DNA of 64,000 nt from contig NZ_LN555523.1 in the NCBI RefSeq assembly GCF_900015215.1, positions 854,912 through 918,911 on the forward strand. The letters are read 5' to 3'. This document shows, in pieces, positions 40,266 to 56,850 of this stretch (positions are counted from its first letter, which is position 1; each line of letters begins with the position of its first letter). Under the pieces are notes generated by a model. The model did not search any database, was not told the DNA's origin, and saw only the letters and a program-made list of their open reading frames with translations. The translations under genes were made by a program, and so were the position numbers. This DNA is from Romboutsia ilealis (GTDB lineage Bacteria; Bacillota; Clostridia; Peptostreptococcales; Peptostreptococcaceae).

Positions 40266-40297
40266 AAAAATGAATCTAAATTTAGATTCATTTTTTT
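40266..40297 (+). terminator. Intrinsic terminator, shared by converging genes
   Basis: AAAAATGAATCTAAATTTAG and its complement form a perfect hairpin with A- and T-runs on either side. The stop codon of the minus-strand LexA-like gene (40288-40290) lies inside it. Confidence 0.85.
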
Positions 40298-40464
40298 ATA
40301 TATTCCAATTGTTCAAGTTTGTTTAAATGAGAATGAACTGTTGATATTGATTTTAATCCTACATGTTCGCATATTTCTCGAACGCTAGGAATGTATCCTT
40401 TTTCTGATGATTCTGATTTTAAGAAATCAAGTATAAGCTTTTGTTTTTGTGATAAGTTAAGCAT
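40288..40464 (-). CDS. Stand-alone LexA DNA-binding domain (58 residues)
   Basis: The translation [18 protein letters not shown]... is the winged-helix domain of Lex[21 protein letters not shown] is the recognition helix region, followed by [16 protein letters not shown] and a TGA stop. The hinge, the Ala-Gly cleavage site and the Ser/Lys S24 protease domain of a full ~205-residue LexA are absent. The frame is intact, and the promoter upstream carries a LexA-type box, so it looks like a functional mini-protein rather than a random scrap. It would bind SOS boxes but could not be cleaved by RecA stimulation. The ribosome binding site is weak (TGGGAAT). Confidence 0.75.
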
Positions 40465-40500
40465 GTTATTCCCATTTTGAATAAATAATATGATAAGTTA

Positions 40501-40537
40501 ATTATAGCATAAAAATATAAAATGTAAACATATGTTC
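40501..40537 (-). promoter_or_regulatory. SOS-type promoter of the mini-LexA gene
   Basis: On the minus strand TTTACA (40523-40528) and TATAAT (40501-40506) are 16 bp apart. GAACATATGTTT (40526-40537) overlaps the -35 element and matches the Gram-positive LexA box GAACNNNNGTTC with one change. The rest of 40538-40829 contains an imperfect hairpin (TGAGTCACAAATTCACTCA, near 40600) and no supported gene. Confidence 0.65.
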
Positions 40538-40829
40538 TTAGAAGTCATAATTTATAATATCAAAATATATTTTAGTTTTCTGAATATCTACTAAGAGAAT
40601 GAGTCACAAATTCACTCAGATATTACTGGGAGAAAAATTTTTAGTCATTTTATATAACTTGAAAATGATTACTAGATATACAGTAAATATAAACATAAAA
40701 GAAATAACGATAATTATAGATGGTTTAGACTTTCTAACACAATTAGAAATATTGAAAGTAAAATAAGAGTATAGTAAAATCAAGTTATTAGTATATGAAG
40801 AAATAATATTCAAGGTAAGAGGTATAAAA

Positions 40830-43800
40830 ATGAAACTAAAAGAAGGTATATACGAACAAGTAATATCTAATAAAATACATGAAGAAATAAAAAATAGAGA
40901 AAATGAAATAAATATACAAAAAGAAGAAATAGAAAAAGAAGAAGCAAAAATAGTACTATCAAAATACCTACAAGAAGTAACTAAGAAAAGCTTAAACCTA
41001 ATGAAAAATAAAGACATAAACAAACAAATACAACTGTGCAACCAAATAATAAACTACCTATCAGAACAAGTAGAAGACGAAGAAATAAAAGAAAACAACA
41101 TACATAAAAATGGAGAAATATTACTATCAATAGAAGAAAAACTTAACAAATCAAAAATTAAAAATAATAACATAAGACCTATAACACCAATATCACAAAG
41201 TTACCTATTTACAAATTCAAACAATGAACCAGATTTAATAAGTGAATTAAAAAGAGAAATAGCAAGCAGTGACAGTATAGATATATTAGTATCATTCATA
41301 AGATGGAGCGGACTAAGGCTAATAAAAGATGAACTAATAGAACATACAAAAACAAAAAAATTAAGAATAATAACAACATCATATATGGGAGCTAGTGAAT
41401 TTAGAGCTATAAAGTTTTTATCACAACTTCCTAATACTGAAATAAAAATATCTTATGACACACAAAGAACAAGATTACATGCTAAAAGCTATATGTTTAA
41501 TAGAAATACAGGATTCACAACAGCATACATAGGATCATCAAATATATCAAAAGATGCAATGACTACAGGACTTGAATGGAATATGAAAGTAAGTGAAAAA
41601 GACTCAAAAAATATCGTGGACAAATTCAAAGCAACCTTTGAAAGCTACTTTAACGATGAAGAATTTAAAACATTTACAGAAGCGGATGAAGAAAAACTAA
41701 AAATAGAATTAAAAAAAGCTAGAGGCAATGATTATAAATCAGAAAATGAAGACATAGCTAATATAGATGTTAGACCATATCACTATCAACAAGAAATACT
41801 AGATACACTAGCAGTTGAAAGAGAAGTACTAGGGCATAATAAAAATTTAGTAGTAGCAGCTACAGGAGTAGGAAAAACTGTAATATCAGCATTTGATTAT
41901 AAAAACTTCAGAAATAATAATAAAGGAAAAGTAAATAGATTATTATTTATTGCTCATAGAGAAGATATATTAATGCAAAGTATGAAAACTTTTAGAACTA
42001 TACTTAGAGATAGAAACTTTGGTGGATTATACACAGGAAATTTTACTCCAGATAATATAGACCATGTATTTATGACAATACAAACGTTCAACTCTAAAAA
42101 GTTTGATGAAAATATAAGTAAAGACTTTTATGACTTTATAATAGTTGATGAGTTTCATCATGCTAGTGCTTTAAGCTATCAAAAGCTACTTTCACATTTT
42201 ACACCTAAAGTACTTTTAGGACTTACAGCAACACCAGAAAGAATGGATGGAAAAGATGTACTAGAATACTTTGATGGAAGAATAAGTAGTGAAATGAGAT
42301 TAGGAGAAGCAATAGATAAAAAATTACTTACACCTTTTCAATACTTCTGCGTAAGTGATGAACTAGATTTAAGTAAAATAAAATGGTCAAAAGGTAGATA
42401 TGACAATAAAGAACTTACAAATCTACTTACAGTAGATAAATTAAATGCTAAGAAAAGAGCAGATTTAATTCTAAAAAGTATAGATGACTATATAGCAGAT
42501 ATAGATGAAGTAGTTGGACTTGGATTTTGTGTAAGTATAGATCATGCAAACTTTATGGCAAACTATTTTAATGAAAAAGGTATACCATCAGTAGCTATAA
42601 GTTCTAAATGTAGTATAGATGAAAGAGATAAAGCAAAATTTGGACTTGTAAATGGTAAATATAAATTTGCCTTTGTAGTTGATTTATATAATGAAGGTGT
42701 AGATATACCAGAAATAAACACAATACTATTTTTAAGACCAACTGATAGTTTAACAGTATTTTTACAGCAATTAGGAAGAGGGCTAAGACTTAGTGATAAC
42801 AAAGAGTGCCTAACAGTACTTGATTATGTAGGACAAGCACACAAAAATTATAACTTTTATGAAAAGTTTTCAGCAATAGCAAAGAAAAAAGGCAAAGCAT
42901 TAAAAGAAGAAATAGAAAGTGGATTTATAACACTTCCAAAAGGTTGCCATTTACATATGGAAAAGCAAGCTAAGGAATATATACTAAGAAATATAAATTC
43001 ATTTATAAATAATAAAACAACAATAACTAATAAAATCAAAACTTTTGAAATAGAAAGTGGCAAAAAGTTAAGCCTTACAAACTTTATAGAATTTTATAAC
43101 ATAACATTAAAAGAAATATACAAAACTAAAAATAGCTTTTATAGACTTTGTGCAAATGCAAAAGTAAAAGAAGATTTTAATGATATAGATGAACAAAGTT
43201 TAGCAGGTGGCATGTTAAGACTTATAAATACAGATTCAATAAGACTTCTTAAATTTTGGATAAATACATTAGAAAATTATAAAGAAGATAAAACAATAAG
43301 CTTTAATGATAGCGAAGAAAAAATGCTACTTATGCTACATTACACTTTATATACAAAATCACCTAAAGACTTAGGCATAAATAGTATAAATGAGTTTTTA
43401 CAAAGGCTTTATAGCAATAAAGTTATTTATGAAGAAATTATAGAAATACTTAAATATAATCTAAGTCATATAAAAGTAAAAACATTTAATGATAATTTAA
43501 GTTTTGATACTAATTTAGAAGTACATGCGACTTACACTATGGAACAGATTTTAGCATCACTTGGAAAACATACTTTAGAATATAAATATCCACTAAGAGA
43601 AGGTGTACTATATATTGAAGATAAGAAAACAGATGTATTTTTAATAACCTTAAACAAGGTTGAAAAGCATTTTTCTCCTTCAACTATGTATGAAGACTAC
43701 GCTATAAATGATGAACTATTTAACTGGCAAAGTCAAAGTAGGACAAGCATAGATTCACCAACAGGTAAAAGGTATATAAATCATAGAGATAGTGGTAATA

Positions 43801-43976
43801 ATATATTGTTGTTTGTTAGGGAAAATAAAAGTGAAGATGGTGTAACAAGTCCATATACTTACTTAGGTCCTGCTGATATTGTAAGTCATAGTGGAAGCAA
43901 ACCAATAAGTATAGTGTGGAAATTAAGAAATAAATTACCTGCAAGTATAGCAGTAAAAGCAGAAAAGGCATTATAA
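40830..43976 (+). CDS. PLD-nuclease / DEAD-box helicase / DUF3427 protein
   Basis: 1048 residues. An N-terminal helical coiled-coil region (1-120) precedes a phospholipase-D-like domain with RLHAKSYMF (His217, Lys219) and AYIGSSN (to about 290). A superfamily II helicase follows: AATGVGKT near 345-351, VDEFHH near 440, GLTATPERMDG, and QQLGRGLRL near 646. The C-terminal DUF3427 region (about 880-1045) contains SPSTMYEDYAIN and FNWQSQS. This domain order is known from predicted DNA-processing and phage-defence proteins. The first part uses AAC/CTA/ACA codons more than neighbours do, hinting at transfer. Defence is an inference. Confidence 0.85.
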   Translation: MKLKEGIYEQVISNKIHEEIKNRENEINIQKEEIEKEEAKIVLSKYLQEVTKKSLNLMKNKDINKQIQLCNQIINYLSEQVEDEEIKENNIHKNGEILLSIEEKLNKSKIKNNNIRPITPISQSYLFTNSNNEPDLISELKREIASSDSIDILVSFIRWSGLRLIKDELIEHTKTKKLRIITTSYMGASEFRAIKFLSQLPNTEIKISYDTQRTRLHAKSYMFNRNTGFTTAYIGSSNISKDAMTTGLEWNMKVSEKDSKNIVDKFKATFESYFNDEEFKTFTEADEEKLKIELKKARGNDYKSENEDIANIDVRPYHYQQEILDTLAVEREVLGHNKNLVVAATGVGKTVISAFDYKNFRNNNKGKVNRLLFIAHREDILMQSMKTFRTILRDRNFGGLYTGNFTPDNIDHVFMTIQTFNSKKFDENISKDFYDFIIVDEFHHASALSYQKLLSHFTPKVLLGLTATPERMDGKDVLEYFDGRISSEMRLGEAIDKKLLTPFQYFCVSDELDLSKIKWSKGRYDNKELTNLLTVDKLNAKKRADLILKSIDDYIADIDEVVGLGFCVSIDHANFMANYFNEKGIPSVAISSKCSIDERDKAKFGLVNGKYKFAFVVDLYNEGVDIPEINTILFLRPTDSLTVFLQQLGRGLRLSDNKECLTVLDYVGQAHKNYNFYEKFSAIAKKKGKALKEEIESGFITLPKGCHLHMEKQAKEYILRNINSFINNKTTITNKIKTFEIESGKKLSLTNFIEFYNITLKEIYKTKNSFYRLCANAKVKEDFNDIDEQSLAGGMLRLINTDSIRLLKFWINTLENYKEDKTISFNDSEEKMLLMLHYTLYTKSPKDLGINSINEFLQRLYSNKVIYEEIIEILKYNLSHIKVKTFNDNLSFDTNLEVHATYTMEQILASLGKHTLEYKYPLREGVLYIEDKKTDVFLITLNKVEKHFSPSTMYEDYAINDELFNWQSQSRTSIDSPTGKRYINHRDSGNNILLFVRENKSEDGVTSPYTYLGPADIVSHSGSKPISIVWKLRNKLPASIAVKAEKAL

Positions 43977-44067
43977 GTCATACGCATATATTTATTTTAG
44001 GGTATAATAGATAGAGAACTTATTAAGGATTTTATTATAGACTTATGAAAAGGAGACAGAAGACAAG

Positions 44068-44775
44068 ATGATTGAAAATAATAAATCTAAGTATGTACCT
44101 GAATTAACATCAAACTTAAGAAATAATTATGTATCAATTCCAAGTATAATATCTAAAGCATCAGGAATAAGAATCTTTGGAAAAAGACTTAAGTCATTCA
44201 TTTTTACTACTGATGTTGCAATAATAAAAAACACTAACGCTGATGCTGTAATAGCAGTATACCCATTTACACCTCAGCCAACAATTACCCAGGCAATACT
44301 ATCAGTATCAGATATACCTGTTTTATGTGGTGTTGGTGGAGGATTAACACATGGAACAAGATCTGCAAATATAGCTTTACATGCAGAGTTTCAAGGGGCA
44401 ATAGGTGCAATACTAAACTCACCAGCACCTGATGAAACTATTAGATATGTAAAAGAATCAATAGATATTCCAGTAGTTGTGACTATAGTATCAGAGTTAA
44501 CAGATGTACAAAGTAAGATTGATGCAGGAGCAGATATCTTAAATGTAAGCGGAGGAGCTAATACGCCTAAGATTATTCGTAAGATTAGAGAAAAGTTTCC
44601 ATATATCCCTATTATTGCAACTGGAGGGACAACTGAAGAATCAATCCTAGAAACAATTGAAGCTGGTGCAAATGCTATTACTTATACGCCACCAACAAAT
44701 GCACAATTATTCAAACATAAAATGCAAGAATATAGAGATATTGAAAATAAAAAGTATAATAAAGAATTTGAGTAA
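44068..44775 (+). CDS. TIM-barrel phosphate-binding protein, function unknown
   Basis: 235 residues. Alternating strand/helix pattern with VLCGVGGGLTHGTRSANIALHAEFQGAIGAILNSPAP in the middle and ILNVSGGANTPKIIRKIREKFPYIPIIATGGTTEESI near the end, where VSGG and ATGG look like the phosphate-binding loops of (beta/alpha)8 enzymes. It is annotated in some clostridia only as a putative hydrolase or hypothetical protein. AAAGGAGACAG precedes ATG. No link to the flanking helicase or McrBC genes is evident. Confidence 0.55.
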   Translation: MIENNKSKYVPELTSNLRNNYVSIPSIISKASGIRIFGKRLKSFIFTTDVAIIKNTNADAVIAVYPFTPQPTITQAILSVSDIPVLCGVGGGLTHGTRSANIALHAEFQGAIGAILNSPAPDETIRYVKESIDIPVVVTIVSELTDVQSKIDAGADILNVSGGANTPKIIRKIREKFPYIPIIATGGTTEESILETIEAGANAITYTPPTNAQLFKHKMQEYRDIENKKYNKEFE

Positions 44776-44802
44776 TTTAAATTTATAAAGTACTTTATTT
44801 GT

Positions 44803-44838
44803 AAATTCATATATGCAAATATATGAATTATTTTTTTT
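44803..44838 (+). terminator. Intrinsic terminator
   Basis: AATTCATATA pairs with TATATGAATT across a short loop and is followed by a run of T. It ends the TIM-barrel gene. Bases 44839-44963 beyond it hold no gene I can support, yet a second terminator follows at 44964, so a small RNA or lost gene there is possible. Confidence 0.8.
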
Positions 44839-44963
44839 AGAAGGTCAAATACATAGTAGATTTAAGATAGTTAGAATTATCTGATAAAAGTTTAATAGCT
44901 TCATTTTTAGAGGAAAAGTATTTATAGCTAAATTTACTGACTTAGGATAAAAGCTTATCAATG

Positions 44964-45000
44964 AAAAATACCCTGTCGAGATATTCGACAGGGTATTTTG
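44964..45000 (+). terminator. ACCCTGTC-type terminator, copy 1
   Basis: AAAATACCCTGTCGA pairs with TCGACAGGGTATTTT. Near-identical stems occur at 50387-50420 and 51140-51175, on the far side of the McrBC-like genes. Confidence 0.82.
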
Positions 45001-45079
45001 TTAGAATTTATTTTTTTTATTAAAAATATGTATTTATATGGTAAGATAAATATATATAACAGAAATTAGGAGTGTAGAA

Positions 45080-45427
45080 ATGTTAAAAGGTGAATATACA
45101 AGGTCAGAATTAGGAGTAAAACGTGGAAATATACAATGGAAAGTAAAAGTAAATGATGAAACTTTATTATTTGTAAATGAGGGAATGAATAATAAGTTAG
45201 AGTCAAATTACATATACAGTAATCACTTAGACAGAGAAAATAATGTACTATATATGTGTAGAAATTGTGGAGGGGAGTGGGTAAAAAAGCTATTAAAAGA
45301 TATAAGTGATACTAATGTAAGAATCTTTTATAGGGATAATAAAAAGCCTATATGGAGTGAATTTATATATGATAATATAATAGAATTGGAAAATGGATTC
45401 AAAGCTATAGGTAATAATATTAAATAA
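45080..45427 (+). CDS. Small protein upstream of McrB, paralogue 1
   Basis: 115 residues, soluble, probably beta-rich. It shares with the next protein the pattern (W/R)-K/R-V-x-x-(D/N)-E-x-x-LFVN-x-G, then a YM/LC segment and a C-terminal strand after VRIFYRDNKKPIWSEF, so the two are diverged duplicates. A CRNCG pair of Cys occurs only here. No known family. AGGAGTGTAG precedes ATG. Its place as first gene before mcrB and mcrC suggests an accessory or specificity role (inference). Confidence 0.58.
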   Translation: MLKGEYTRSELGVKRGNIQWKVKVNDETLLFVNEGMNNKLESNYIYSNHLDRENNVLYMCRNCGGEWVKKLLKDISDTNVRIFYRDNKKPIWSEFIYDNIIELENGFKAIGNNIK

Positions 45428-45447
45428 TAAATATTAGGGAGAGAAAT

Positions 45448-45780
45448 ATGAAGATATTACAAAGAGGATTAAAAAAAGAAGAAATAGCGCAAGCAAAAAG
45501 ATATATGAGATGGTATAGAGTAATTGATAATGAAATGAGACTATTTGTAAATTTAGGACTTGTAACAGATAAGGGAGAAATAGCTAATACAATAGATTAC
45601 AAAAATGATAAAGCATATTTATGTATGGCAGATTTAGAGTATAGCAAGAAGTTTTATAATAAAAATAAACACTATAAAGTAAGATTATATGCTAAAACTG
45701 ATGCAAGTAGCTTATATAATGAATATGAAGTAAAAGGTTGGTATTTAAGTGAAAAAGGATTAGAGCTAGATTTAGCATAA
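45448..45780 (+). CDS. Small protein upstream of McrB, paralogue 2
   Basis: 110 residues, soluble. Conserved pattern with the preceding protein: WYRVIDNEMRLFVNLG, KAYLCMADLEYSKKF, KVRLYAKTDASSLYNEYEVKGW. It lies 20 bp behind paralogue 1 and 47 bp before the McrB-like gene, with GGGAGAG before ATG, so the four genes likely form one operon. No family recognised and no catalytic motif seen. Confidence 0.58.
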   Translation: MKILQRGLKKEEIAQAKRYMRWYRVIDNEMRLFVNLGLVTDKGEIANTIDYKNDKAYLCMADLEYSKKFYNKNKHYKVRLYAKTDASSLYNEYEVKGWYLSEKGLELDLA

Positions 45781-45827
45781 AAATTCACAACTTTTTACAT
45801 ACAAAACGAATTTTAAGGAGAATAAAA

Positions 45828-48065
45828 ATGAAAAAAAGTTGGGAACCGATAGAAACAGACTTTATAAACACAATAAAATCAACAAGTATGAGCAAAAGCT
45901 ACAAAATACCACTACTATGGGCATTTTATAATAATGGAAATATAAAACTAAAAATAGATGAAGATGATATATATAATGCATTTAAGGAATTCTATGAAAA
46001 AGAAGAAAATGCAAAAGACTTAGAAAATCAAAAGAGTACACAAAATTATAAAAATTGGAGTAAAAAAGAATACATAAAACTAGCAAAAGATAACCCTATA
46101 AAACACCTAGCAGATAAAACATCAAAGTATTTCTATAAAGAAAATAATCTATTCTGCATATCGGGAATATTAGAACCTTATATACATAAAAAAGAATTCA
46201 TACAAGAATACAAAGATACAATACAAAGCCTAGAAAATAGATACTTTAAAAGAGAAACAAATAATATAAAAGAAAGTGATAATAAATACATGGAACTAAA
46301 AGATTTAATATTATCATTTGAAGAAAATTACAATGAAAATAATACTCAAGATGAAAAACTTAGACAAGAATTTACAAATAAATTTCCGCTAGATAAATTA
46401 TCAACACTTGAAATAGAAAGATATGCACTAGGAAAACAACCAGACAATCTATGTTGGTGGTTAGAATTTAACACAGTACCATTAGGGAGCATAAAGGGTG
46501 GAACTGCGAAAAAATTTAAAATATATTATTCAAATAAAGATAATAAGTGGATATATCCATCAGAATTTTCAAACGTAGAAGATGCATGGATACAGTTAAG
46601 AAAAAGTATATATGATTTTATTGAAAACTTTAAATATGAAAAATACGAATTACTAAATAGCTATAGCTTAATATCATCTATGAATATGTTTAAAACGAAA
46701 CTTTTATACATGTATTTCCCTGAAAAATTATTACCTATATATAGTTTAGATCATATACAAAAGTTATTATCTTACTTTGGATGCTTAGATGAAGAAATCA
46801 AAGATTTGAATATAATAGAAGCTAATATGAAATTAAAAGAAATACAAGATAGAAGTATTGAGTTTAAGTCATGGGATGGTTTAAAATTTATGAGATTTTT
46901 ATACTCATATGTATTTCCAACCTTTAATAAAGAGGAAAATATTAATGATGAAGACATAGTGGAAATGGATGGAGAAATAATTGTAATAGATATTATAAAT
47001 AAAGTTTCAGATTATATAAAAAATCAAGGATACAACTATACATACAACCAACTATCAAACCTGTACCTATCACTAAAAACAAAACCATTTACAATACTAG
47101 CAGGAATAAGTGGAACAGGAAAATCAAAAATAATAAGACTACTTGCAGATGCAATACAAGCAGACTACACACTAATAAGTGTAAGACCTGATTGGAACGA
47201 TGCAACTGACCTAATAGGCTATAAAAACCTAGACGATAAATTTATAAAAGGTCAACTAACAAAAGCAATATTAAAAGCACAACAAAACAAAAATAAATCA
47301 CACTTAATATGTCTAGACGAAATGAATTTAGCGAGAGTAGAATACTACCTAAGTGATTACCTAAGCATAATAGAAAGTCGTAAAAAAGTAGGACAAGATA
47401 TAATAACTGATAACATAGTAGAATATCAAGAAAATGGTGAAAATATAAAATTACATATACCAGACAACATCTACATAATCGGAACAGTAAACATGGATGA
47501 CACAACATTCCAATTTAGTAGAAAAGTATTAGATAGAGCAAATACAATAGAATTTTCAGACGTAGACTTAGACAACTTATTCTTTGAAGTAAATGAAAAA
47601 GTAGAAAGCTTAAATGTATCTAATGACTTTTTAAAAACAACATACTTAAAAACTATGGATATAGAACCAGAGTATAGAGAATATGCAAAAGAAGTAAACA
47701 AAAAAATAATAGAAATAAATGAAATACTTAAAAAATCACAAAAGCAATTTGCATATAGAGTAAGAGATGAAATACTATTTTACCTGGTAGAAAATAAGAA
47801 AGCTAATTTACTACATGAAGATACAGCATTTGACTATCAAATAATGCAAAAAATACTTCCTGCAATAAGTGGAAGTGAAGAAAGTATATATCAAGTTTTA
47901 ATAGATTTATTAAACTTTGTATGTGAAACAAACACTATAGACAATATAGAAGAAGCAACGAACTATTTAAAAGAAACAAAAGTAAGATATGAAAATAGTG
48001 CAAATAAAATTATATATATGCTAAAAGGATATCAAAATGATGGGTATGTTAGTTACTGGTACTAA
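45828..48065 (+). CDS. McrB-like AAA+ NTPase
   Basis: 745 residues. The N-terminal ~400 residues have no recognised motif beyond helical character and probably form the target-recognition region; the C-terminal AAA+ module has Walker A GISGTGKSK near 426, Walker B HLICLDEMNLARVEYYL near 490-505, and the sensor GTVNMDDTTFQFSRKVLDRAN near 552. In type IV systems McrB hexamers translocate on modified DNA and drive the McrC nuclease. It overlaps the mcrC-like start by 29 bp. N-terminal codon use is rich in CTA/ACA/AAC, unlike neighbours. Confidence 0.82.
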   Translation: MKKSWEPIETDFINTIKSTSMSKSYKIPLLWAFYNNGNIKLKIDEDDIYNAFKEFYEKEENAKDLENQKSTQNYKNWSKKEYIKLAKDNPIKHLADKTSKYFYKENNLFCISGILEPYIHKKEFIQEYKDTIQSLENRYFKRETNNIKESDNKYMELKDLILSFEENYNENNTQDEKLRQEFTNKFPLDKLSTLEIERYALGKQPDNLCWWLEFNTVPLGSIKGGTAKKFKIYYSNKDNKWIYPSEFSNVEDAWIQLRKSIYDFIENFKYEKYELLNSYSLISSMNMFKTKLLYMYFPEKLLPIYSLDHIQKLLSYFGCLDEEIKDLNIIEANMKLKEIQDRSIEFKSWDGLKFMRFLYSYVFPTFNKEENINDEDIVEMDGEIIVIDIINKVSDYIKNQGYNYTYNQLSNLYLSLKTKPFTILAGISGTGKSKIIRLLADAIQADYTLISVRPDWNDATDLIGYKNLDDKFIKGQLTKAILKAQQNKNKSHLICLDEMNLARVEYYLSDYLSIIESRKKVGQDIITDNIVEYQENGENIKLHIPDNIYIIGTVNMDDTTFQFSRKVLDRANTIEFSDVDLDNLFFEVNEKVESLNVSNDFLKTTYLKTMDIEPEYREYAKEVNKKIIEINEILKKSQKQFAYRVRDEILFYLVENKKANLLHEDTAFDYQIMQKILPAISGSEESIYQVLIDLLNFVCETNTIDNIEEATNYLKETKVRYENSANKIIYMLKGYQNDGYVSYWY

Positions 48066-50382
48066 TAAAGATATATTAAAAGTATCTACAGAGGATTTTA
48101 CACTATACATATCTGGTAGTAGTGAAAATAAAAAGTTTAAAGCCACAAACAATAATAAAAATATAAATGCTCATTTAGGCATAATAACAAATTATGATTA
48201 TATTACAGAAACTATAAATAGTTTTAATGAATTAGAAATAAACAATACTAATACAATGTATCCAAGCTTTTTTGAAGATGGAATATATAATATATATTTA
48301 GAAAATAACACTAATGATAAAATTGATATATATCATGAACACAAGGAAATAAGAGAAAACATAATAACTAGAGGTAAAAATATATTTGGATCTTTTAAGT
48401 TTAATTCAGATATAGGATATTCTACATTTAAAATTATAAAAAATTCTAGCGAAGTGTTATCTTTAACAATACAAGTATTTCCATCAAAACTTGATTATAT
48501 GGATGACTATAATGAAATTTTAAAAGATATAAATGAAGAGATAACTTCATTGGTATTCGATTTTTTAAACAAGACTTTTTCAAGTGTAAATATATGTGAT
48601 AACAAAAATCAAACGGGACTTGAGTTTATAGTTATAATTAATAACATATATGAAAAGCTAGAAAAAGCAATAAAGAGGATTGAAAGATTTCCAAAGCATA
48701 GTGTTATAAATGAATACAACTTAAAAAATAAAAATAAATGTAAAGTAGTAGGAGTAAAAGAAAGTATAAAGCATTTAAGAAAAAATCATACATCAAAAAA
48801 TGTAGTTGAGGTTAGAAAAAATACAACTTTAGATATATTTGAAAATCAATATGTAAAATATATTATAAAAAGAATATTAAGCAAAATAAAGAGTGTTAAA
48901 TTAACACTTGAAAAAGAGAATAAAGTTGATACTAATTATTATAATAAATTAAATGAATATGAAAAAAGGCTAACTCATCATCTTAATACATTTTTTAAAA
49001 ATATAAGTGATGTAAACAATAATAAATTAATGACATTAGCCTTTAAAATGACAAGTGGATACAAAGAATGTTACTATTACTATTTACTTTTATCAAAAAG
49101 TTTAGATATAAGTAGTGGACTTTATGAAATTAGTAATAAAAAATTATGGAACCTATATGAAATATGGTGCTATATAAAAATACATAGCATTATAAAAGAG
49201 CTAAGATATGAAGCGAAAGAAAATTCCATAATACAATCAACATCGAATGGATTAACACTATCACTTATGCAAAACAAAGAAGCTAAATGTATATACGAAA
49301 ATAAAGAAGGTAAAAAAATAGAACTATTTTACAATAAACAATACAACAAACTACCTACAACAAATCAAAGACCAGATACAGTACTTTGTCTAAAGGGTGT
49401 CGGGAAAACCGACAGGGTATATATATTTGATGCAAAGTATAGAATTTATGTTGATAAGAATGAAAAAATATGTCCTATGGAATATGATATAAATGTTATG
49501 CATAGATATAGAGATTCCATAGTAAGCAAAAGTAGCATAAACAATCATTTTAAATATGAATCAGTTGGAGCTTATGTAATGTTTCCTTGTAGTGATGAAA
49601 AAACATTTGAGGAAAATAAATATTACAAAAGTATAGAGAAAGTTAATATAGGGGCGATTCCTATGCTTCCAGGTTCAACTTCTCTTATGAAAAAACATTT
49701 ATGTAAAATTATAAATGAATCATATATGGAAGCTATAAATAATAATCCTGTATTTGATGAAGAAGATGATTATTATAAGTTTAAGAATAAAAATGTAATG
49801 ATAGTAAATACAAAGGATAAAAATCACTTTGATATTTATAAAGAAAATAGATTTTATCATATACCTAAAAAATCATTATCAAAGCTAAATATTGGAGTAG
49901 AGTATTTGGCATTTTATCAGCCAATTGATAATTCAAGTTCAAATAATAAGTTTAACAATGACTTTAGTATAGAGTACTATGCAAAAATAAAAGACTATTA
50001 TGAGTATGAAAGAGGAAGTTGTAAAGAAATTAAATGTAAAAATGGTAAAGAAAAAGACATTTATTTAAGATTTGAACTTGAAGAATTTAAGAGTATAGGA
50101 CCTATTAATAGAGTTGAATACGGAACAAGAACTTTAAATTATACCACTTTGTACTTGTTAAAAATAGCTACTACTATGCATGAGCTTTATTTAAATAGTA
50201 GAAGAGAAATAGATGTTTATAAGATACTAAAAAAGATTAGTAAAGATAAAGATATAACTCTTAAAAAAGAAAATAACGGATATTATCTAGAAAATGATTT
50301 TATTAAAATATTAGATAATGGTGATATAAAACTAAATGGAAATAAAGTAAATATAACTGAATTAATTTATTTATTAAAGTAA
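48037..50382 (+). CDS. McrC-like DUF2357 protein with PD-(D/E)XK nuclease
   Basis: 781 residues. A beta-rich N-terminal region and a DUF2357-type helical middle (about 150-400) precede the nuclease core: QRPDTVLC with Asp447 and YIFDAKYRI with Asp465-Ala-Lys467, the D...(D/E)xK metal site. A further C-terminal domain (about 570-781) is larger than in classical McrC (348 residues). The start ATG 48037 lies inside mcrB. The pair would cleave foreign DNA, probably modified DNA; the target is unknown. Confidence 0.8.
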   Translation: MMGMLVTGTNKDILKVSTEDFTLYISGSSENKKFKATNNNKNINAHLGIITNYDYITETINSFNELEINNTNTMYPSFFEDGIYNIYLENNTNDKIDIYHEHKEIRENIITRGKNIFGSFKFNSDIGYSTFKIIKNSSEVLSLTIQVFPSKLDYMDDYNEILKDINEEITSLVFDFLNKTFSSVNICDNKNQTGLEFIVIINNIYEKLEKAIKRIERFPKHSVINEYNLKNKNKCKVVGVKESIKHLRKNHTSKNVVEVRKNTTLDIFENQYVKYIIKRILSKIKSVKLTLEKENKVDTNYYNKLNEYEKRLTHHLNTFFKNISDVNNNKLMTLAFKMTSGYKECYYYYLLLSKSLDISSGLYEISNKKLWNLYEIWCYIKIHSIIKELRYEAKENSIIQSTSNGLTLSLMQNKEAKCIYENKEGKKIELFYNKQYNKLPTTNQRPDTVLCLKGVGKTDRVYIFDAKYRIYVDKNEKICPMEYDINVMHRYRDSIVSKSSINNHFKYESVGAYVMFPCSDEKTFEENKYYKSIEKVNIGAIPMLPGSTSLMKKHLCKIINESYMEAINNNPVFDEEDDYYKFKNKNVMIVNTKDKNHFDIYKENRFYHIPKKSLSKLNIGVEYLAFYQPIDNSSSNNKFNNDFSIEYYAKIKDYYEYERGSCKEIKCKNGKEKDIYLRFELEEFKSIGPINRVEYGTRTLNYTTLYLLKIATTMHELYLNSRREIDVYKILKKISKDKDITLKKENNGYYLENDFIKILDNGDIKLNGNKVNITELIYLLK

Positions 50383-50386
50383 ATAA

Positions 50387-50420
50387 TACCCTGTCGTATT
50401 TTTGACCGGGTATTATTTTT
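50387..50420 (+). terminator. ACCCTGTC-type terminator, copy 2
   Basis: AATACCCTGTCG and GACCGGGTATT pair imperfectly (one mismatch), followed by TTTTTT. It ends the McrBC-like operon and borders repeat copy F. Confidence 0.8.
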
Positions 50421-50500
50421 TCACATTGAAGTAAGAAAATTATAGTAAGAAAAAATGTGGATAACCTATGAATGCAAGTATTATCAATAACCTTATTAAA
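50421..50500 (+). repeat. Left half of the modular repeat, copy F
   Basis: After the terminator: GAAGTAAGAAAATTATAGTA, a perfect TGTGGATAA (50456-50464), GAATGCAAGTATTATCAATA and CCTTATTAAA. No right half. It abuts the truncated anti-sigma-like gene on the minus strand and supplies its final codons, so insertion here may have cut that gene. Confidence 0.65.
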
Positions 50501-50709
50501 TTCAACACTTGTATATCCCTTTAAAAAAGATGAAGAAGATGAATTATTAAATTCATTAGCATCATAAACCGTACCATCTTTCATAGTTATCTTAGAATAT
50601 AAAAATTATCATAACTAATTCTTTGTTTTTCATCATAGCTAAGATTTTTTTCATTATCTAACAAATCATCATTACTACTTTTATTAATTATTTCATGTAT
50701 TTTACTCAT
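50501..50709 (-). pseudogene. Broken gene after the ECF sigma relic (anti-sigma/DUF4179-like)
   Basis: Start ATG at 50709 has a perfect GGAGG site; it reads MSKIHEIINKSSNDDLLDNE... for 40 codons to a stop at 50587. A second stretch just beyond reads TMKDGTVYDANEFNN...GYTSVEFNK, which looks like a C-terminal portion of the same protein with the middle deleted. In clostridia the gene behind such sigma factors usually encodes a membrane anti-sigma or DUF4179 protein; that identity is inferred from position. Confidence 0.5.
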
Positions 50710-50727
50710 ATATAATTCCTCCTTCTA

Positions 50728-51022
50728 TTAGGGCCTTTTTAACTTATCTTTTTGACGATAAAGGCAATTTTCAACCTTTTTAGGAGATAAACCTAGACGA
50801 CTTGATATATCTTTTATCTTGTTCAAAATTATCAATATTTTGCCATAGTTTAAAGAATGTATCAGATATAGCTTCTTCTATATCTTCATTTTTATAATCA
50901 GATAATATATTTTTACAAATTGTTTTAACAGCTCCACCATAAATATCTAAGGCCAGGCTAAGTCCATTCTCGGGTGATTTTTTCAACAGAGAGATGATTT
51001 TTTTATCTTTAAACTTATTCAT
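50728..51022 (-). pseudogene. ECF sigma factor with internal deletion
   Basis: ATG 51022 (after AAGGAGACAATC) encodes sigma region 2: SLALDIYGGAVKTICKNILS, DIEEAISDTFFKLWQNIDNFE. Soon after, in another frame, region 4 appears: KDISSRLGLSPKKVENCLYRQKDKLKRP, ending at 50728. The linker and most of the region between are gone and the join is out of frame, so the protein is not functional. A GGAGG-started anti-sigma-like fragment follows. Confidence 0.72.
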
Positions 51023-51139
51023 TGATTGTCTCCTTGGTTAATTCATTTATTATATATCAATACGCATAAAAATCATTTTTCACTCAATTAATTATAAATT
51101 ATTTTTATTTATAGTATTTATAAAAGATGATATGACATA

Positions 51140-51175
51140 AAAATACCCTGTCAAAAAACTCGACAGGGTATTTTA
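51140..51175 (-). terminator. ACCCTGTC-type terminator, copy 3
   Basis: AATACCCTGTC pairs with GACAGGGTATT around an eight- or nine-base loop. It directly follows the stop codon of the minus-strand amidohydrolase gene and has A- and T-runs for either direction. Confidence 0.82.
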
Positions 51176-52789
51176 TTAACTTAAACTATAAACACATCTT
51201 CCATCTAAGAAAGTCTTTAAAACTTTTACATCTTTTATTTTATCAACATCAATATCTAAAAGATTATCACTTAACAATACAAAATCAGCAGCCTTACCAA
51301 CAGCTATATCACCCTTTAAATTCTCCTCAAAAGAAGCATAAGCACCATTTCTTGTAAAAGAAAGTATTGCATCTTTAACACTAAGTGCTTGATTAGGTAA
51401 AAATGGACCTTTACCATTTAAAGTTTTTCTAGTAACAGCGCAGTAAATTCCATTAAGTACATTAGGCAACTCAACAGGGCAGTCAGAGCCATTACTCATA
51501 GTAGTTTCCTTAAACAAAGTATTAAAGTTATAGCTAGTTTTAGCTCTATCAACTCCAATTCTATCCTCAACTATATTAATATCATAATCTAAAAATATAG
51601 ACTGAATATAAGCATGAAGTTTTAAATCTCTAAACCTATTTAGTAAATCACTATTTGTTAATTGACAATGAACAACACCATGTCTGTGATTATCTCTTGG
51701 ATATTTATCTAAAGCCTTTTCTATTGAGTTAACAACCATATCCATAGCCTTATCTCCTATGGCATGTATTGCCACTTGCATATTGTTTTTATGAGCAAGT
51801 TCAACCATATCATCAAATTGTTCTTGAGTATAAGTACACATTCCAAAAGTGCTATTATCATCAGCATAAGGTTCATTTAAATAAGCAGTTCTAGCCCCTA
51901 ATGATCCATCACCTAATAATTTAAGAGGACCTATTTTAAAATAATCATTACCAACACCTGTAGTGTATCCTTTAGATAAAAAATTTTCTAATTCTTCTTT
52001 ATGAGGAAGTTGAGCTTGTTCATATATTTTAACAGTAAGCCTTCCTTCGTTTGCAAGTTCTTTGTATGCATTTATTATTACTTCATAATCAATTTCTGGA
52101 AATACTATAAAGTCATCAGTTTGAGCAGAAGTAACTCCGTAAGAGTTTAAACTTTCACAGGCTTTTAATATCATATTTTTTATATCTTCTTTATCTGGAT
52201 TTTGTATTTTATTATAGATTAAATTAAGAGCATTTTCTTTAAATATACCATTAGGCTCATTATTTTCATCTATATCAAATTGGCCACCTTCAATTTGTAA
52301 GGTATTTTTATTTATACCTGATAATTCTAGTGCTTTTGAGTTTACAATACAAATATGACCGCAAGTTCTTATTATACATATTGGATATTCTGTTGAAATT
52401 TCATCTAAATCATCTTTAGTTGGAAATCTATTAACATCATTAAAATAGTCGTGGTTCCAACCTCTACCATATACCCATTCATTTTCTCTTAAATTATTAG
52501 AGTTTATATATTCTTTTATTGCATTTTTCATTTCTTCTAAAGAAGAAGTTGTTTTAGTTAAATCTATCATGTTTAAAGAATATCCATAGCCTAAAACATG
52601 CATATGAGAATCATTAAATCCAGCACATACAAACTTTTCTTTTAAATTAGTTAAAGTCGAGTTTTCATTTTTATATTTAAGAGCATTTTTATTATTTCCT
52701 ACATATATAAATTTACTATTTTCAACTACAAATGCTTGTTGTAGTTCTTTATCTCCTGTAAATACTTTTCCATTATAATAAATATCCAT
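51176..52789 (-). CDS. Amidohydrolase-superfamily protein (YtcJ-like)
   Basis: 537 residues, metal-dependent hydrolase. The N-terminal small domain MDIYYNGKVFTGD is followed by CAGFNDSHMHVLGYG with the first metal His pair, VYGRGWNHDYF, GDGSLGARTAYL, AIGDKAMD and HCQLTNSDLL, and NGSDCPVELPNVLNGIYCAVTRK near the C-terminus. The plan matches YtcJ-like exoenzyme-regulatory-type amidohydrolases whose substrates are mostly unknown (imidazolone or hydantoin-like amides are candidates). GGGGGGAAAAATT precedes ATG 52789. Transcribed alone. Confidence 0.85.
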   Translation of the reverse strand: MDIYYNGKVFTGDKELQQAFVVENSKFIYVGNNKNALKYKNENSTLTNLKEKFVCAGFNDSHMHVLGYGYSLNMIDLTKTTSSLEEMKNAIKEYINSNNLRENEWVYGRGWNHDYFNDVNRFPTKDDLDEISTEYPICIIRTCGHICIVNSKALELSGINKNTLQIEGGQFDIDENNEPNGIFKENALNLIYNKIQNPDKEDIKNMILKACESLNSYGVTSAQTDDFIVFPEIDYEVIINAYKELANEGRLTVKIYEQAQLPHKEELENFLSKGYTTGVGNDYFKIGPLKLLGDGSLGARTAYLNEPYADDNSTFGMCTYTQEQFDDMVELAHKNNMQVAIHAIGDKAMDMVVNSIEKALDKYPRDNHRHGVVHCQLTNSDLLNRFRDLKLHAYIQSIFLDYDINIVEDRIGVDRAKTSYNFNTLFKETTMSNGSDCPVELPNVLNGIYCAVTRKTLNGKGPFLPNQALSVKDAILSFTRNGAYASFEENLKGDIAVGKAADFVLLSDNLLDIDVDKIKDVKVLKTFLDGRCVYSLS

Positions 52790-52982: not shown

Positions 52983-54896
52983 ATGTATGCATTAATTATG
53001 GTAATTACTTTATTATTAAGTTATATAGTTTCAAAACAAAAAGTAGAATACAGAAAAATTTTAATATTTATAAATGCAGTTGTATGTTGTATATATATAA
53101 TTTGGAGAATAACAGTAATACCAATTCATAGTGGAATAATAAGTTTTTTATTGGGAATTACACTTTTTTTAGCAGAAGCACTAGGATTGATATCATTTTT
53201 GAATTTTAAATATTTATTTACAAAAAAATATAAACTAGAACTTAAAACTTTAGATGATTTTCAATATGGAAATATACCGTATGTAGATGTTTTAATATGC
53301 ACATACAATGAACCTTTATATCTATTAGAAAAGACAATAGCAGCATCTACTAACTTAGATTATCCAACACATAAATTTAAAATTCATGTATGCGATGATG
53401 GAAGAAGAGATTCATTGAAGTTATTATGTAAAAAGTATAATGTAAATTATATTTCAAGAGATAATAATGAAGGAGCAAAAGCAGGTAATATAAATAATGC
53501 ACTTAAATATTTAAAAGGCGATTTATTTGCAGTATTAGATGCAGATATGATACCTAAAAAAGAATTTTTAAGCAGAACAGTAGGCTATTTTACTAATGAA
53601 AATTTAGCATTTGTTCAAGTGCCACAGGTTTATTATAATAAAGATACTTATCAATATAATCTAATGAAAAATATACCGAATGAACAAGATTTCTTTATGA
53701 GAGATATTCAAGAAGCAAGAGCTTCGATAAATGCGGTGCTACATGTTGGAACTAATGCCTTATTTAAAAGGGAATATGTTAATGAAATCGGTGGATATCC
53801 TACATGTTCGATTACTGAAGATATGGCAGTAGGAATGTTATTACAATCTAGAGGATATGATTCAGTATTTATAAATGAGGAGTTAGTACTAGGTCTTAGT
53901 GCAACTACATTTACTGAATTAGTAAAGCAAAGGGATAGATGGTGTAGAGGAAATATACAAGTATTAAAACACTTTAATCCAATATTTACGAAAGGATTGA
54001 CATTGCCACAAAAGATTGCATACTTTGATGGGGGAGTATACTGGTTTTCTAATTTACAAAAAATTGTTTTTATACTTTTCCCGATTATATATTTATTAAC
54101 GAGAAAACTTATAATAGACTCATCAATATTAACTTTATTAAATATGTATATACCATTTATATTAGGACAAATTTTAATATTTAATACACTTTCACCAGGA
54201 AATAGAAAGTTAACATGGGCACATTTTTATGAGATAGCAATGGCACCTCATTTAACATTGTCTATATTAAAAGAAATGTTATTTTTAAAAACTAAGTTTA
54301 ATGTTACATTAAAAGAAATTCAGCAAGATAAAAAACAATTTCAATTTAGAGTTGCACTTCCTCATATAGTTATAGTAATTGTTACAATTATTGCATGGAT
54401 AGTATCTACACGATTACTTATAGAAAAGAATATTCATGTACAAGCTTATTTATTAAATATGATTTGGAGTATTTATAACTTTATAGGTGCAATTATTTGT
54501 ATAAAAGTATCATATCAAAAGCCAATATTTAGAACCAGTGAAAGAATAAATATAAATGAAGATATAACGGTAGAATGTGATTATAAACAAAATAAATTTA
54601 AGGCAAAGATATTAAATTTATCAGAAAAAGGAATTGGATTGAAATTAAATGAAGAGTTAGATTTGCAATGTGAAGAAACTATTAAATTAGATTTAAAAGG
54701 AAGTATATTTATTTGTAAAATATCTAGGATAAATAAAGATTTACTTGGTCTTAGTTTTAATAAAGTAACGCCGTATCAAATGAAATTAATTATGAGTATA
54801 TTTACAGAAAATATGCAGCCATATTATAAAATTGCAAAATCACAAGAATATATAGTTAATAAAAAAGAAGTAGCTGAAGTAGCTATGGTTTCTTAA
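52983..54896 (+). CDS. Membrane glycosyltransferase 2 with PilZ domain (cellulose-synthase-like)
   Basis: 637 residues. Two or three N-terminal membrane helices, then a processive GT2 domain with DDG (138-140), DAD (186-188), TED (278-280) and QRDRW (316-320), the full set for BcsA-type polymer synthases; several more membrane helices (about 350-500) form the export channel. A C-terminal PilZ domain (about 515-610) has RTSER and NLSEKGIGL, the c-di-GMP-binding signature. It probably makes a beta-linked exopolysaccharide switched on by c-di-GMP. No bcsB/Z partners are adjacent. Start ATG follows AAGGAGCTAACAG. Confidence 0.87.
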   Translation: MYALIMVITLLLSYIVSKQKVEYRKILIFINAVVCCIYIIWRITVIPIHSGIISFLLGITLFLAEALGLISFLNFKYLFTKKYKLELKTLDDFQYGNIPYVDVLICTYNEPLYLLEKTIAASTNLDYPTHKFKIHVCDDGRRDSLKLLCKKYNVNYISRDNNEGAKAGNINNALKYLKGDLFAVLDADMIPKKEFLSRTVGYFTNENLAFVQVPQVYYNKDTYQYNLMKNIPNEQDFFMRDIQEARASINAVLHVGTNALFKREYVNEIGGYPTCSITEDMAVGMLLQSRGYDSVFINEELVLGLSATTFTELVKQRDRWCRGNIQVLKHFNPIFTKGLTLPQKIAYFDGGVYWFSNLQKIVFILFPIIYLLTRKLIIDSSILTLLNMYIPFILGQILIFNTLSPGNRKLTWAHFYEIAMAPHLTLSILKEMLFLKTKFNVTLKEIQQDKKQFQFRVALPHIVIVIVTIIAWIVSTRLLIEKNIHVQAYLLNMIWSIYNFIGAIICIKVSYQKPIFRTSERININEDITVECDYKQNKFKAKILNLSEKGIGLKLNEELDLQCEETIKLDLKGSIFICKISRINKDLLGLSFNKVTPYQMKLIMSIFTENMQPYYKIAKSQEYIVNKKEVAEVAMVS

Positions 54897-56244: not shown

Positions 56245-56286
56245 TAAAAAGTAGTTATTAGTAATATTACTAATAACTACTTTTTT
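56245..56286 (+). terminator. Intrinsic terminator after bsh
   Basis: AAAAGTAGTTATTAGTAATA and its complement form a perfect stem ending in TTTTTT; its T-run is the left edge of repeat copy G. Confidence 0.88.
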
Positions 56287-56426
56287 ACGCTTAAGGATAT
56301 TATAATACTTCAAAAAATGTGGATAAATTCTGAATGTAAGTAATATCAATAAATTGGTTTTGAGCGTAAAAAAGATTTTGAGCAACGGACGAAGTCGTTG
56401 GCGACATGAGCGAAGCGAATTTTTTA
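56287..56426 (+). repeat. Terminator-linked modular repeat, copy G (short form)
   Basis: Left half complete with a perfect TGTGGATAA. Both GC-rich submodules are deleted at the same joints as in copy E. It ends within 2 bp of the stop codon of the convergent cdd gene, just as copy A abuts its convergent neighbour. Confidence 0.82.
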
Positions 56427-56427
56427 T

Positions 56428-56850
56428 TTAATCTAAATCTTTACCTGTAAATGCTAATGGTAAAAGTTCTTCTAATGTATATTCTAAGTATTCTTCTGTA
56501 CTTTTTGCGATAATTACTTTAAATGTTTTTAAATCACAAAATTCAGCCATAACTTGTCTACATACAGCACAAGGTGCACAGAAATCTCCTTCTCCTTGTT
56601 TTATACCTTCTTTATTTCCTACAATGGCAATAGCAGTAAATTCGTTTTGACCTTCAGAAATTGCTTTGAAGAAAGCTGTTCTTTCAGCACAATTTGTTGG
56701 AGTATATGCAGCATTCTCTATATTACATCCTTGATAAATTTTACCGTTAGTACCAAGTAAAGCTGCACCTACATTGAATTTTGAGTATGGCGTATAGCAA
56801 AATTTTTGAGCCTCAAATGCTTTTTCTATTAATAATTTTGTATCTATCAT
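56428..56850 (-). CDS. cdd: Cytidine deaminase (paralogue 2)
   Basis: 140 residues, closely similar to the protein at 32136 along its whole length: PYSKFNVGAAL, NCAERTAFFKAISEGQ and CAPCAVC with the three zinc Cys and catalytic Glu. It lies 11 bp behind a Crp/Fnr-family gene and is co-transcribed with it, so this copy is probably under special control whereas the other stands alone. GGAGG lies before ATG. Two cdd genes within 25 kb suggest duplication or nucleoside-scavenging specialisation. Confidence 0.94.
   Translation of the reverse strand: MIDTKLLIEKAFEAQKFCYTPYSKFNVGAALLGTNGKIYQGCNIENAAYTPTNCAERTAFFKAISEGQNEFTAIAIVGNKEGIKQGEGDFCAPCAVCRQVMAEFCDLKTFKVIIAKSTEEYLEYTLEELLPLAFTGKDLD

What the first reader, a model, noticed from the sequence alone, without database searches (positions are those of the whole stretch)
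40830..50382. Defence-like island with PLD-helicase-DUF3427 and McrBC-like genes
A PLD nuclease fused to a superfamily II helicase and DUF3427 is followed, after one TIM-barrel gene, by an McrB-like AAA+ protein and an McrC-like DUF2357/PD-(D/E)XK nuclease. Parts of the helicase and mcrB genes use AAC, CTA and ACA codons more than neighbours. Together with the mini-LexA at one end and broken genes at the other, this looks like an acquired anti-phage region.
Basis: partly seen in the sequence, partly recalled or inferred. Interest (0 to 1): 0.55.

Follow-up and report, generated by a model that had tools for sequence, protein, structure and literature searches.

The report
Two modified-DNA restriction systems, reader swapped
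A gut bacterium (Romboutsia ilealis) carries, in an accessory stretch of its chromosome, two enzyme systems predicted to destroy foreign DNA bearing chemical marks; in one of them the part thought to read the mark differs from that of a close relative although the rest is nearly the same.

Summary
40830-43976 is a SauUSI-type PLD nuclease-SF2 motor-DUF3427 protein; 45828-50382 is an McrB/McrC pair with intact motifs. The genome is Romboutsia ilealis CRIB(T). Homology to two other Romboutsia genomes stops at the ldcA terminator (about 40300) and the amidohydrolase terminator (51138). Between them also lie a mini-LexA, a TIM-barrel gene, two small genes and a sigma-factor fragment: a patchwork with two separate systems, not one operon.

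The unexpected part is McrB. Its N-terminus joins a winged-helix-like module (X, no Pfam family) to a PD-T4-1-like module. X is also the C-terminal domain of PLD-SF2 proteins, and none of 11 scanned carries DUF3427. In a tree of 43 X domains the five from McrBs form one clade. In a chicken Romboutsia MAG the same mcrBC (87-90% identical DNA) has another domain in front of X and 7 bp where CRIB has 685 bp encoding the PD-T4-1-like module: a natural exchange of candidate reader domains. A third Romboutsia holds only a 160-bp mcrC relic.

Best reading: two modification-dependent (type IV) restriction systems; new variant of a known kind. Activity and the marks read are inferred, not shown.

The parts
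40303..51138 (.). accessory stretch between the ldcA terminator and the amidohydrolase terminator
   Evidence: DNA homology to G002 and G003 ends at 40296-40302 and begins again at 51138-51139
40291..40464 (-). mini-LexA, 58 aa, DNA-binding domain only
   Evidence: LexA_DNA_bind 7.6e-16; not found at the G002/G003 loci read
40830..43976 (+). SauUSI-type PLD-SF2-DUF3427 protein, 1048 aa
44068..44775 (+). TIM-barrel-like gene, probably unrelated to either system
   Evidence: below cut-offs
44964..45003 (+). hairpin, 88% direct repeat of the amidohydrolase terminator
45080..45427 (+). small gene S1, distant paralogue of S2 (BLAST E 2e-4)
45448..45780 (+). small gene S2, with relatives in genomes where it has no mcrBC next to it
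45828..48065 (+). mcrB-like gene, 745 aa
45858..46289 (+). module X (aa 11-154), winged-helix-like
46290..46974 (+). DNA of the PD-T4-1-like module, replaced by 7 bp in G003
46995..48062 (+). AAA+ GTPase domain (aa 390-745), GISGTGKS, DEMN, NMDD
48037..50382 (+). mcrC-like gene, DUF2357 and PDDEXK_7, 29 bp overlap with mcrB
50383..50416 (+). hairpin directly after mcrC, same stem as the two others
50780..51022 (-). sigma-70 region-2 fragment, 80 aa
51139..51178 (-). amidohydrolase terminator hairpin, present after that gene in G002 and G003 too

Best explanation
Two separate modification-dependent (type IV) restriction systems sit side by side in an accessory patchwork. (1) The SauUSI-type protein binds DNA carrying 5-methyl- or 5-hydroxymethylcytosine through DUF3427; its SF2 motor then moves along the DNA and its paired PLD domains cut both strands. 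(2) McrB forms a GTP-driven ring whose N-terminal modules (X plus the PD-T4-1-like domain) bind marked or foreign DNA; McrC docks through DUF2357, stimulates GTP hydrolysis and cuts with its PD-(D/E)XK domain. X is probably a winged-helix DNA-binding module that one McrB lineage shares with, and probably took from, PLD-SF2 restriction helicases. The domains before and after X differ between strains, which would change the mark that is read. Shown: domain content, intact motifs, shared X, the module exchange, the accessory state. Inferred: restriction activity, target marks, the role of X, ring assembly, direction of the X transfer. The mechanisms of SauUSI and McrBC are carried over from characterised relatives.
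For: SauUSI homology over residues 126-1020 of 1048, recognition domain included; PADLOC mREase_IV 2.4e-231; motifs present. No C5 DNA methyltransferase (PF00145) in the own genome, 0 of 1, while 10 of 14 control genomes have one. McrB AAA matches E. coli McrB; McrC domains strong. X: the SF2 helicase lies in the same frame in 25 of 29 phylum loci read; DUF3427 in 0 of 11 scanned X-bearing PLD-SF2 proteins; the 5 McrB X domains are one clade, 97/94. CRIB versus G003: 436 bp at 87.4% and 3407 bp at 89.6%, both without gaps, with 685 bp against 7 bp between them and different 5' ends; homology ends at the mcrC stop.
Against: No activity data. X has no significant Foldseek match, its best aligner score is modest (Z 7.3), and none of 18 members matches the DpnI-type winged helix. 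CRIB McrB lacks the N-terminal domain of its relatives, keeping at most nine similar residues; it could be a loss-of-function deletion. The SauUSI motif HxK(x)4E reads HxK(x)4N here. McrBC was not matched by PADLOC as a complete system.
Confidence: 0.62

Rival explanations
1. Only the SauUSI-type enzyme is functional. The CRIB mcrBC is a decaying copy: it lost its N-terminal reader domain by deletion and persists with intact motifs by chance.
For: CRIB McrB lacks the N-terminal domain of G003 and VA2 and keeps at most nine similar residues. G002 holds only a 160-bp mcrC relic, so decay does occur in the genus.
Against: Frames and motifs are intact over 745 and 781 codons. Against G003 synonymous codon differences outnumber the others, 120 to 93 in mcrC, 46 to 37 in the AAA block and 25 to 20 in X; since most random changes are not synonymous this suggests some constraint, though no dN/dS was computed and both lineages contribute.
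Confidence: 0.2
2. The PLD-SF2-DUF3427 protein is a DNA repair or recombination enzyme rather than a restriction enzyme; its helicase resembles RadD and XPB.
For: Helicase part matches RadD (NCBIfam 6.4e-25, far below its cut-off; PDB 4e-15). Related proteins are widespread, 43 of 61 relatives by any match.
Against: The full-length match is to SauUSI and includes the nuclease and recognition domains; PADLOC mREase_IV 2.4e-231; patchy and non-syntenic occurrence in the genus.
Confidence: 0.08
3. The stretch acts mainly against plasmids and other transferred DNA, or as a maintained mobile unit, not against phages.
For: SauUSI is described as a barrier to gene transfer (PMC7913695, abstract and passages). 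The segment with mcrBC is bracketed by 40-bp direct repeats and its edges coincide with terminators.
Against: No transposase or integrase in the stretch; type IV enzymes are known to act on modified phage DNA as well (PMC3874153, passages).
Confidence: 0.1

Closest known systems
SauUSI (Staphylococcus aureus, PDB 7clg)
   Same: PLD nuclease, SF2 motor, coupler region and DUF3427 in the same order, aligned over residues 126-1020
   Different: about 100 extra N-terminal residues; HxK(x)4N in place of HxK(x)4E; target not tested
E. coli McrBC
   Same: AAA+ GTPase with a partner bearing DUF2357 and PD-(D/E)XK
   Different: NMDD instead of NTAD; X and PD-T4-1-like modules instead of the E. coli N-terminal domain
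NTD-wH-NTPase/McrC fusions and PLD-wH enzymes (Helbrecht 2024, PMC11037411; abstract, passages and sections 14 and 27 seen)
   Same: winged-helix domain between an N-terminal domain and an McrB-like NTPase paired with McrC, and also winged helix fused to PLD nucleases
   Different: no DpnI_C (PF17726) match in 18 X members; here the PLD proteins carry an SF2 motor; whether any of their fusions contain X was not tested
PD-T4-1 (PADLOC model PDLC04021; named in the series of PMC9519451, whose main text has no whole-word occurrence of it)
   Same: McrB aa 156-404 align with positions 9-257 of 383 (1.4e-32)
   Different: the last third of the model is missing; here the domain sits inside an McrB
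NxD-branch McrBC systems, CoCoNuTs included (Bell 2024, PMC11090510; passages seen)
   Same: N-M-D followed by D or E in the GTPase signature
   Different: intact McrC nuclease; no HEPN-, CnuH- or CnuE-like neighbour among the genes scanned; NxD placement itself not settled

Membership tests
SauUSI-type type IV enzyme | PLD nuclease domain with HxK | tested here: met
   PLDc_2 5.9e-10, H217-A-K219; the later E is N224
SauUSI-type type IV enzyme | SF2 translocase motifs (DExH, QxxGRGxR) | tested here: met
SauUSI-type type IV enzyme | C-terminal recognition domain DUF3427 | tested here: met
   (8.7e-29); alignment reaches residue 1020
SauUSI-type type IV enzyme | ATP-dependent cutting of m5C/hm5C DNA, two sites preferred | not testable with these tools
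   biochemistry; SauUSI properties from passages of PMC3874153 and PMC7913695
McrBC | AAA+ GTPase with Walker A, Walker B and the N-containing signature | tested here: met
McrBC | adjacent McrC with DUF2357 and PD-(D/E)XK | tested here: met
   RPD and FDAK present
McrBC | modification- and GTP-dependent restriction | not testable with these tools
   no assay
NxD branch of McrB (Bell 2024) | NxD in place of NxxD, followed by D or E | tested here: inconclusive
   NMDD in 13 and NMDE in 2 of 15 related AAA domains; NMDE fits only NxD, but NMDD also reads as NxxD, and HMMER aligns NMDD with NTAD of E. coli without a gap. No tree of the whole family was made
CoCoNuT | coiled coils with CnuE/CnuH-type partners | tested here: inconclusive
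   no HEPN or CnuH-like domain in the 8 neighbouring proteins scanned; coiled coils were not computed
PD-T4-1 system | full-length match to the PD-T4-1 model | tested here: not met
   only positions 9-257 of 383 match
PDC-M26 (PADLOC candidate) | both halves A and B match | tested here: not met
   M26A 7.8e-47 for McrB; no PADLOC match for McrC up to E 0.1
DpnI-type 6mA-reading winged helix | match to DpnI_C (PF17726) | tested here: not met
   not among the families matched by any of 18 X members up to E 10; none in the own genome
winged-helix fold | structural match to winged-helix domains | tested here: inconclusive
   AF2 model pLDDT 88; best Z 7.3 to a Cdc6 winged helix, rmsd 3.0 over 103 residues; DpnI Z 4.3; Foldseek nothing at E <= 0.001

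The most novel reading that the evidence does not exclude
Module X is an undescribed family of DNA-mark readers (or mark-coupled DNA grips) used by two mechanically different restriction machines: PLD-SF2 translocases, where it stands where SauUSI has DUF3427, and McrBC rings of one lineage, which captured it once. CRIB and the chicken Romboutsia MAG are a natural experiment in which the McrB modules beside X were exchanged while X, the GTPase and McrC stayed about 87-90% identical. It would show PD-T4-1-like domains as exchangeable readers and, if the NxD placement holds, give the uncharacterised NxD branch a testable target.
Probability: 0.35. Interest if true: 0.6.

Novelty: new variant of a known kind. 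Interest (0 to 1): 0.42.

Why it matters
Here is a compact, intact McrBC pair in a cultured gut type strain, with a near-identical relative that differs mainly in its N-terminal modules, so that target recognition could be assigned to a module by simple exchange. The pair probably belongs to the NxD branch, of which Bell 2024 says that no GTPase has been characterised (passage). Module X links two restriction families and has no Pfam entry that its members match.

Tried and rejected
G001, the nearest genome, first looked like a copy of the locus with broken mcrB and mcrC. The breaks are runs of N, and its coordinates keep a nearly constant offset to CRIB, so it looks reference-guided, or stretches are withheld. 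Rejected as evidence of decay, and not used as independent evidence of synteny.

S1/S2 as a third component of mcrBC: rejected. Of 9 genomes of 297 with an S2 match two are CRIB and G001; the 7 others have no mcrBC in the 4-13 kb read around S2. The small genes upstream of other mcrBs show no BLAST similarity to S1/S2.

Repeated exchange of X between machines: pairwise identities hinted at it, but the tree puts the 5 McrB X domains in one clade (97/94). That tree has 43 rows (5 McrB, 37 PLD-SF2, 1 HIT fusion). Left out beforehand: L132, L144, L146, L149, L151 (short, split or badly framed) and L123. The 21 further matches that were given no locus were not read either.

Weak X hits in six frames of about 1090 aa: the one read, L123, is an HsdR protein, so I take the other five as chance or very distant too; they are still inside the tally of 39 of 297. 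DpnI-type winged helix as identity of X: no sequence support. One X member matched ORC_WH_C at E 3, which is chance level. PDB sequence matches: none convincing for X or the PD-T4-1-like module; structure matches: nothing significant by Foldseek. For the PD-T4-1-like model the second aligner had one row, Z 3.0.

Mobile elements: 286 of 72,556 plasmid records and 3 of 50,697 phage records match McrB, none over 80% of it; the viral-contig scan, which reaches close relatives only, gave none.

Literature: the CRIB genome paper has 0 occurrences of 'restriction' and of 'phage' in its main text. The listings showed no title on this locus or module X; only passages of some were read, so this is no proof that it is not in print.

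Full report
WHAT IS THERE. The genome is Romboutsia ilealis CRIB(T): the window's contig has 2,581,778 bases, the chromosome size given in PMC5598433 (abstract and passages); the second contig is 6,415 bases by difference, where the paper gives 6,145. The neighbouring glycosyltransferase at 52983-54896 has FNVTLK at residue 439, R at 517 and T at 308, as described for RiGT2 of that strain (PMC10374906, passages).

SYSTEM 1. 40830-43976 encodes 1048 aa with PLDc_2, ResIII, Helicase_C and DUF3427. PADLOC calls it mREase_IV at 2.4e-231. In the PDB its best match is SauUSI, 7clg, 2.6e-78 over residues 126-1020. HxK, DEFH and QxxGRGxR motifs are present. SauUSI cuts m5C and hm5C DNA with ATP, is a dimer joined by its PLD domains, and translocates (PMC3874153 and PMC7913695, passages). 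The own genome holds no C5 DNA methyltransferase by PF00145, 0 of 1, against 10 of 14 control genomes, which fits but does not prove that specificity. Matches to this protein occur in 43 of 61 genomes, many of them only to the helicase part.

SYSTEM 2. 45828-48065 and 48037-50382 overlap by 29 bp and encode an McrB-like AAA+ protein and an McrC-like DUF2357/PDDEXK_7 protein. Walker A (GISGTGKS), DEMN and NMDD are intact in McrB, RPD and FDAK in McrC. The signature is NMDD in 13 and NMDE in 2 of the 15 related AAA domains given, whereas the 4 proteins with a PD-T4-1-like domain and a different AAA read NT[AS]D. NMDE fits only the NxD type of Bell 2024 (PMC11090510, passages). NMDD fits both types, and HMMER aligns it with NTAD of E. 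coli McrB without a gap. I think the NxD branch likely, but not settled.

McrB N-TERMINUS. Residues 11-154 (module X) match no Pfam family above its cut-off. Residues 156-404 match positions 9-257 of 383 of PADLOC's PD-T4-1 model at 1.4e-32. The X model has pLDDT 88. Foldseek finds nothing significant; the second aligner's best row is a Cdc6 winged helix, Z 7.3, rmsd 3.0 over 103 residues, followed by ORC-type winged helices and, lower, DpnI at Z 4.3. I treat winged-helix-like as likely, not shown. The PD-T4-1-like module gives a fair model (pLDDT 83) with no PDB match of weight.

X IS SHARED WITH ANOTHER MACHINE. X has a match in 39 of 297 genomes of the order (six weak HsdR-sized frames included) and 51 of 398 of the phylum, the own genome counted in both. 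Of 29 phylum loci read besides the own one, 25 carry the SF2 helicase in the same frame, with X near the C-terminus; the others were a lone 150-aa frame, a 179-aa frame at a contig end and two frames that I failed to read. Most of these loci hold too little DNA to show the N-terminal PLD. Eleven longer X-bearing proteins from the order, scanned with Pfam, show ResIII in 11, PLDc_2 in 10 and DUF3427 in none at E 0.01. One protein is an X-HIT fusion (L117). In a tree of 43 X domains the 5 from McrBs are one clade, 97/94; with 15 PLD-SF2 ones and the HIT fusion they form a set, 100/100, against the other 22 PLD-SF2 ones. The simplest reading is one capture of X by this McrB lineage, but the root is not known, so the direction is inferred.

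MODULE EXCHANGE. DNA of CRIB and of G003 (an uncultured Romboutsia from chicken) aligns in two gap-free blocks: window 45854-46289 (436 bp, 87.4%) and 46975-50381 (3407 bp, 89.6%). Between them CRIB has 685 bp and G003 7 bp. In front of X, G003 has an additional N-terminal domain of about 135 residues, of which CRIB keeps at most nine similar residues. Homology ends at the end of mcrC. Other McrBs of this lineage have MrcB_N plus X (G016, a Terrisporobacter MAG), the G003-type domain plus X plus another segment (VA2), or MrcB_N or a PUA-like domain without X. Both sides of X thus behave as exchangeable slots.

ACCESSORY STATE. The end of ldcA and its terminator are 96.9% (G002) and 90.5% (G003) identical up to 40296-40302, after which other genes follow; the amidohydrolase with its terminator is 93.5% and 88.2% identical from 51138-51139 on, but lies about 830 kb from ldcA in G002. 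G002 has a 160-bp relic of mcrC, residues 14-47 next to a DNA match to the region of residues 545-564, 2.8 kb from its amidohydrolase. In G003 mcrBC lies about 13 kb from it on one contig. So mcrBC has been near that gene in this genus and comes and goes there. A 40-bp copy of the amidohydrolase terminator (88%) lies at 44964-45003, so that S1, S2, mcrBC and the sigma fragment are bracketed by direct repeats 6.2 kb apart. The 13-base core of the hairpin occurs 8 times in the window within 2 mismatches against 0.44 expected, and twice, with mismatches, in 239 kb of the own genome elsewhere. Recombination between such repeats could move or delete the segment; this is inference.

CODON USE.

MECHANISM AND JUDGEMENT. 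I commit to two independent type IV restriction systems with exchangeable McrB modules (0.62). Shown are domains, motifs, shared X, the exchange and the accessory state; activity, marks and the role of X are inferred. Close precedents exist: winged helices as 6mA readers combined with PD-(D/E)XK, HNH, GIY-YIG and PLD nucleases, and unstudied NTD-wH-NTPase/McrC fusions (PMC11037411, abstract, passages and sections 14 and 27). X has no DpnI_C match, so it is either a separate family or too distant to see. New variant of a known kind; interest 0.42.

Noticed in passing
window 52983-54896: The gene is RiGT2, the published (1,3;1,4)-beta-glucan synthase of R. ilealis CRIB (FNVTLK at 439, R517, T308).
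   Followed up: yes
L068 6943-10809 (G000:C1 about 1,400,942-1,404,808): A second McrBC-like pair in the same genome: McrB-like 641 aa with NMDE and a long charged stretch that looks coiled-coil by eye, McrC-like 644 aa with weak DUF2357; PADLOC PDC-M26A and M26B. Possibly CoCoNuT-like.
   Followed up: partly
window 44964-45003, 50383-50416, 51139-51178: Three hairpins sharing the stem ATACCCTGTC, nearly absent from 239 kb of the genome sampled elsewhere; the third is the amidohydrolase terminator shared with G002 and G003.
   Followed up: partly
window 50450-50490 and 56312-56352: A repeat (88% identical over 41 nt); window 56280-56430 also matches G002 (L224 14501-14651, 97%), suggesting a small dispersed element.
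   Followed up: no
L117 4458-5447 (G196): Module X fused to a HIT-domain protein, 329 aa.
   Followed up: no
L228 3884-12114 (G023): An X-type PLD-SF2 protein and a SauUSI-type protein (75% to the window's) about 2.5 kb apart, so a relative can carry both forms side by side.
   Followed up: no
L058 (G001): This genome keeps a nearly constant offset to CRIB with many N runs; it looks reference-guided or partly withheld, and synteny drawn from it should be distrusted.
   Followed up: partly
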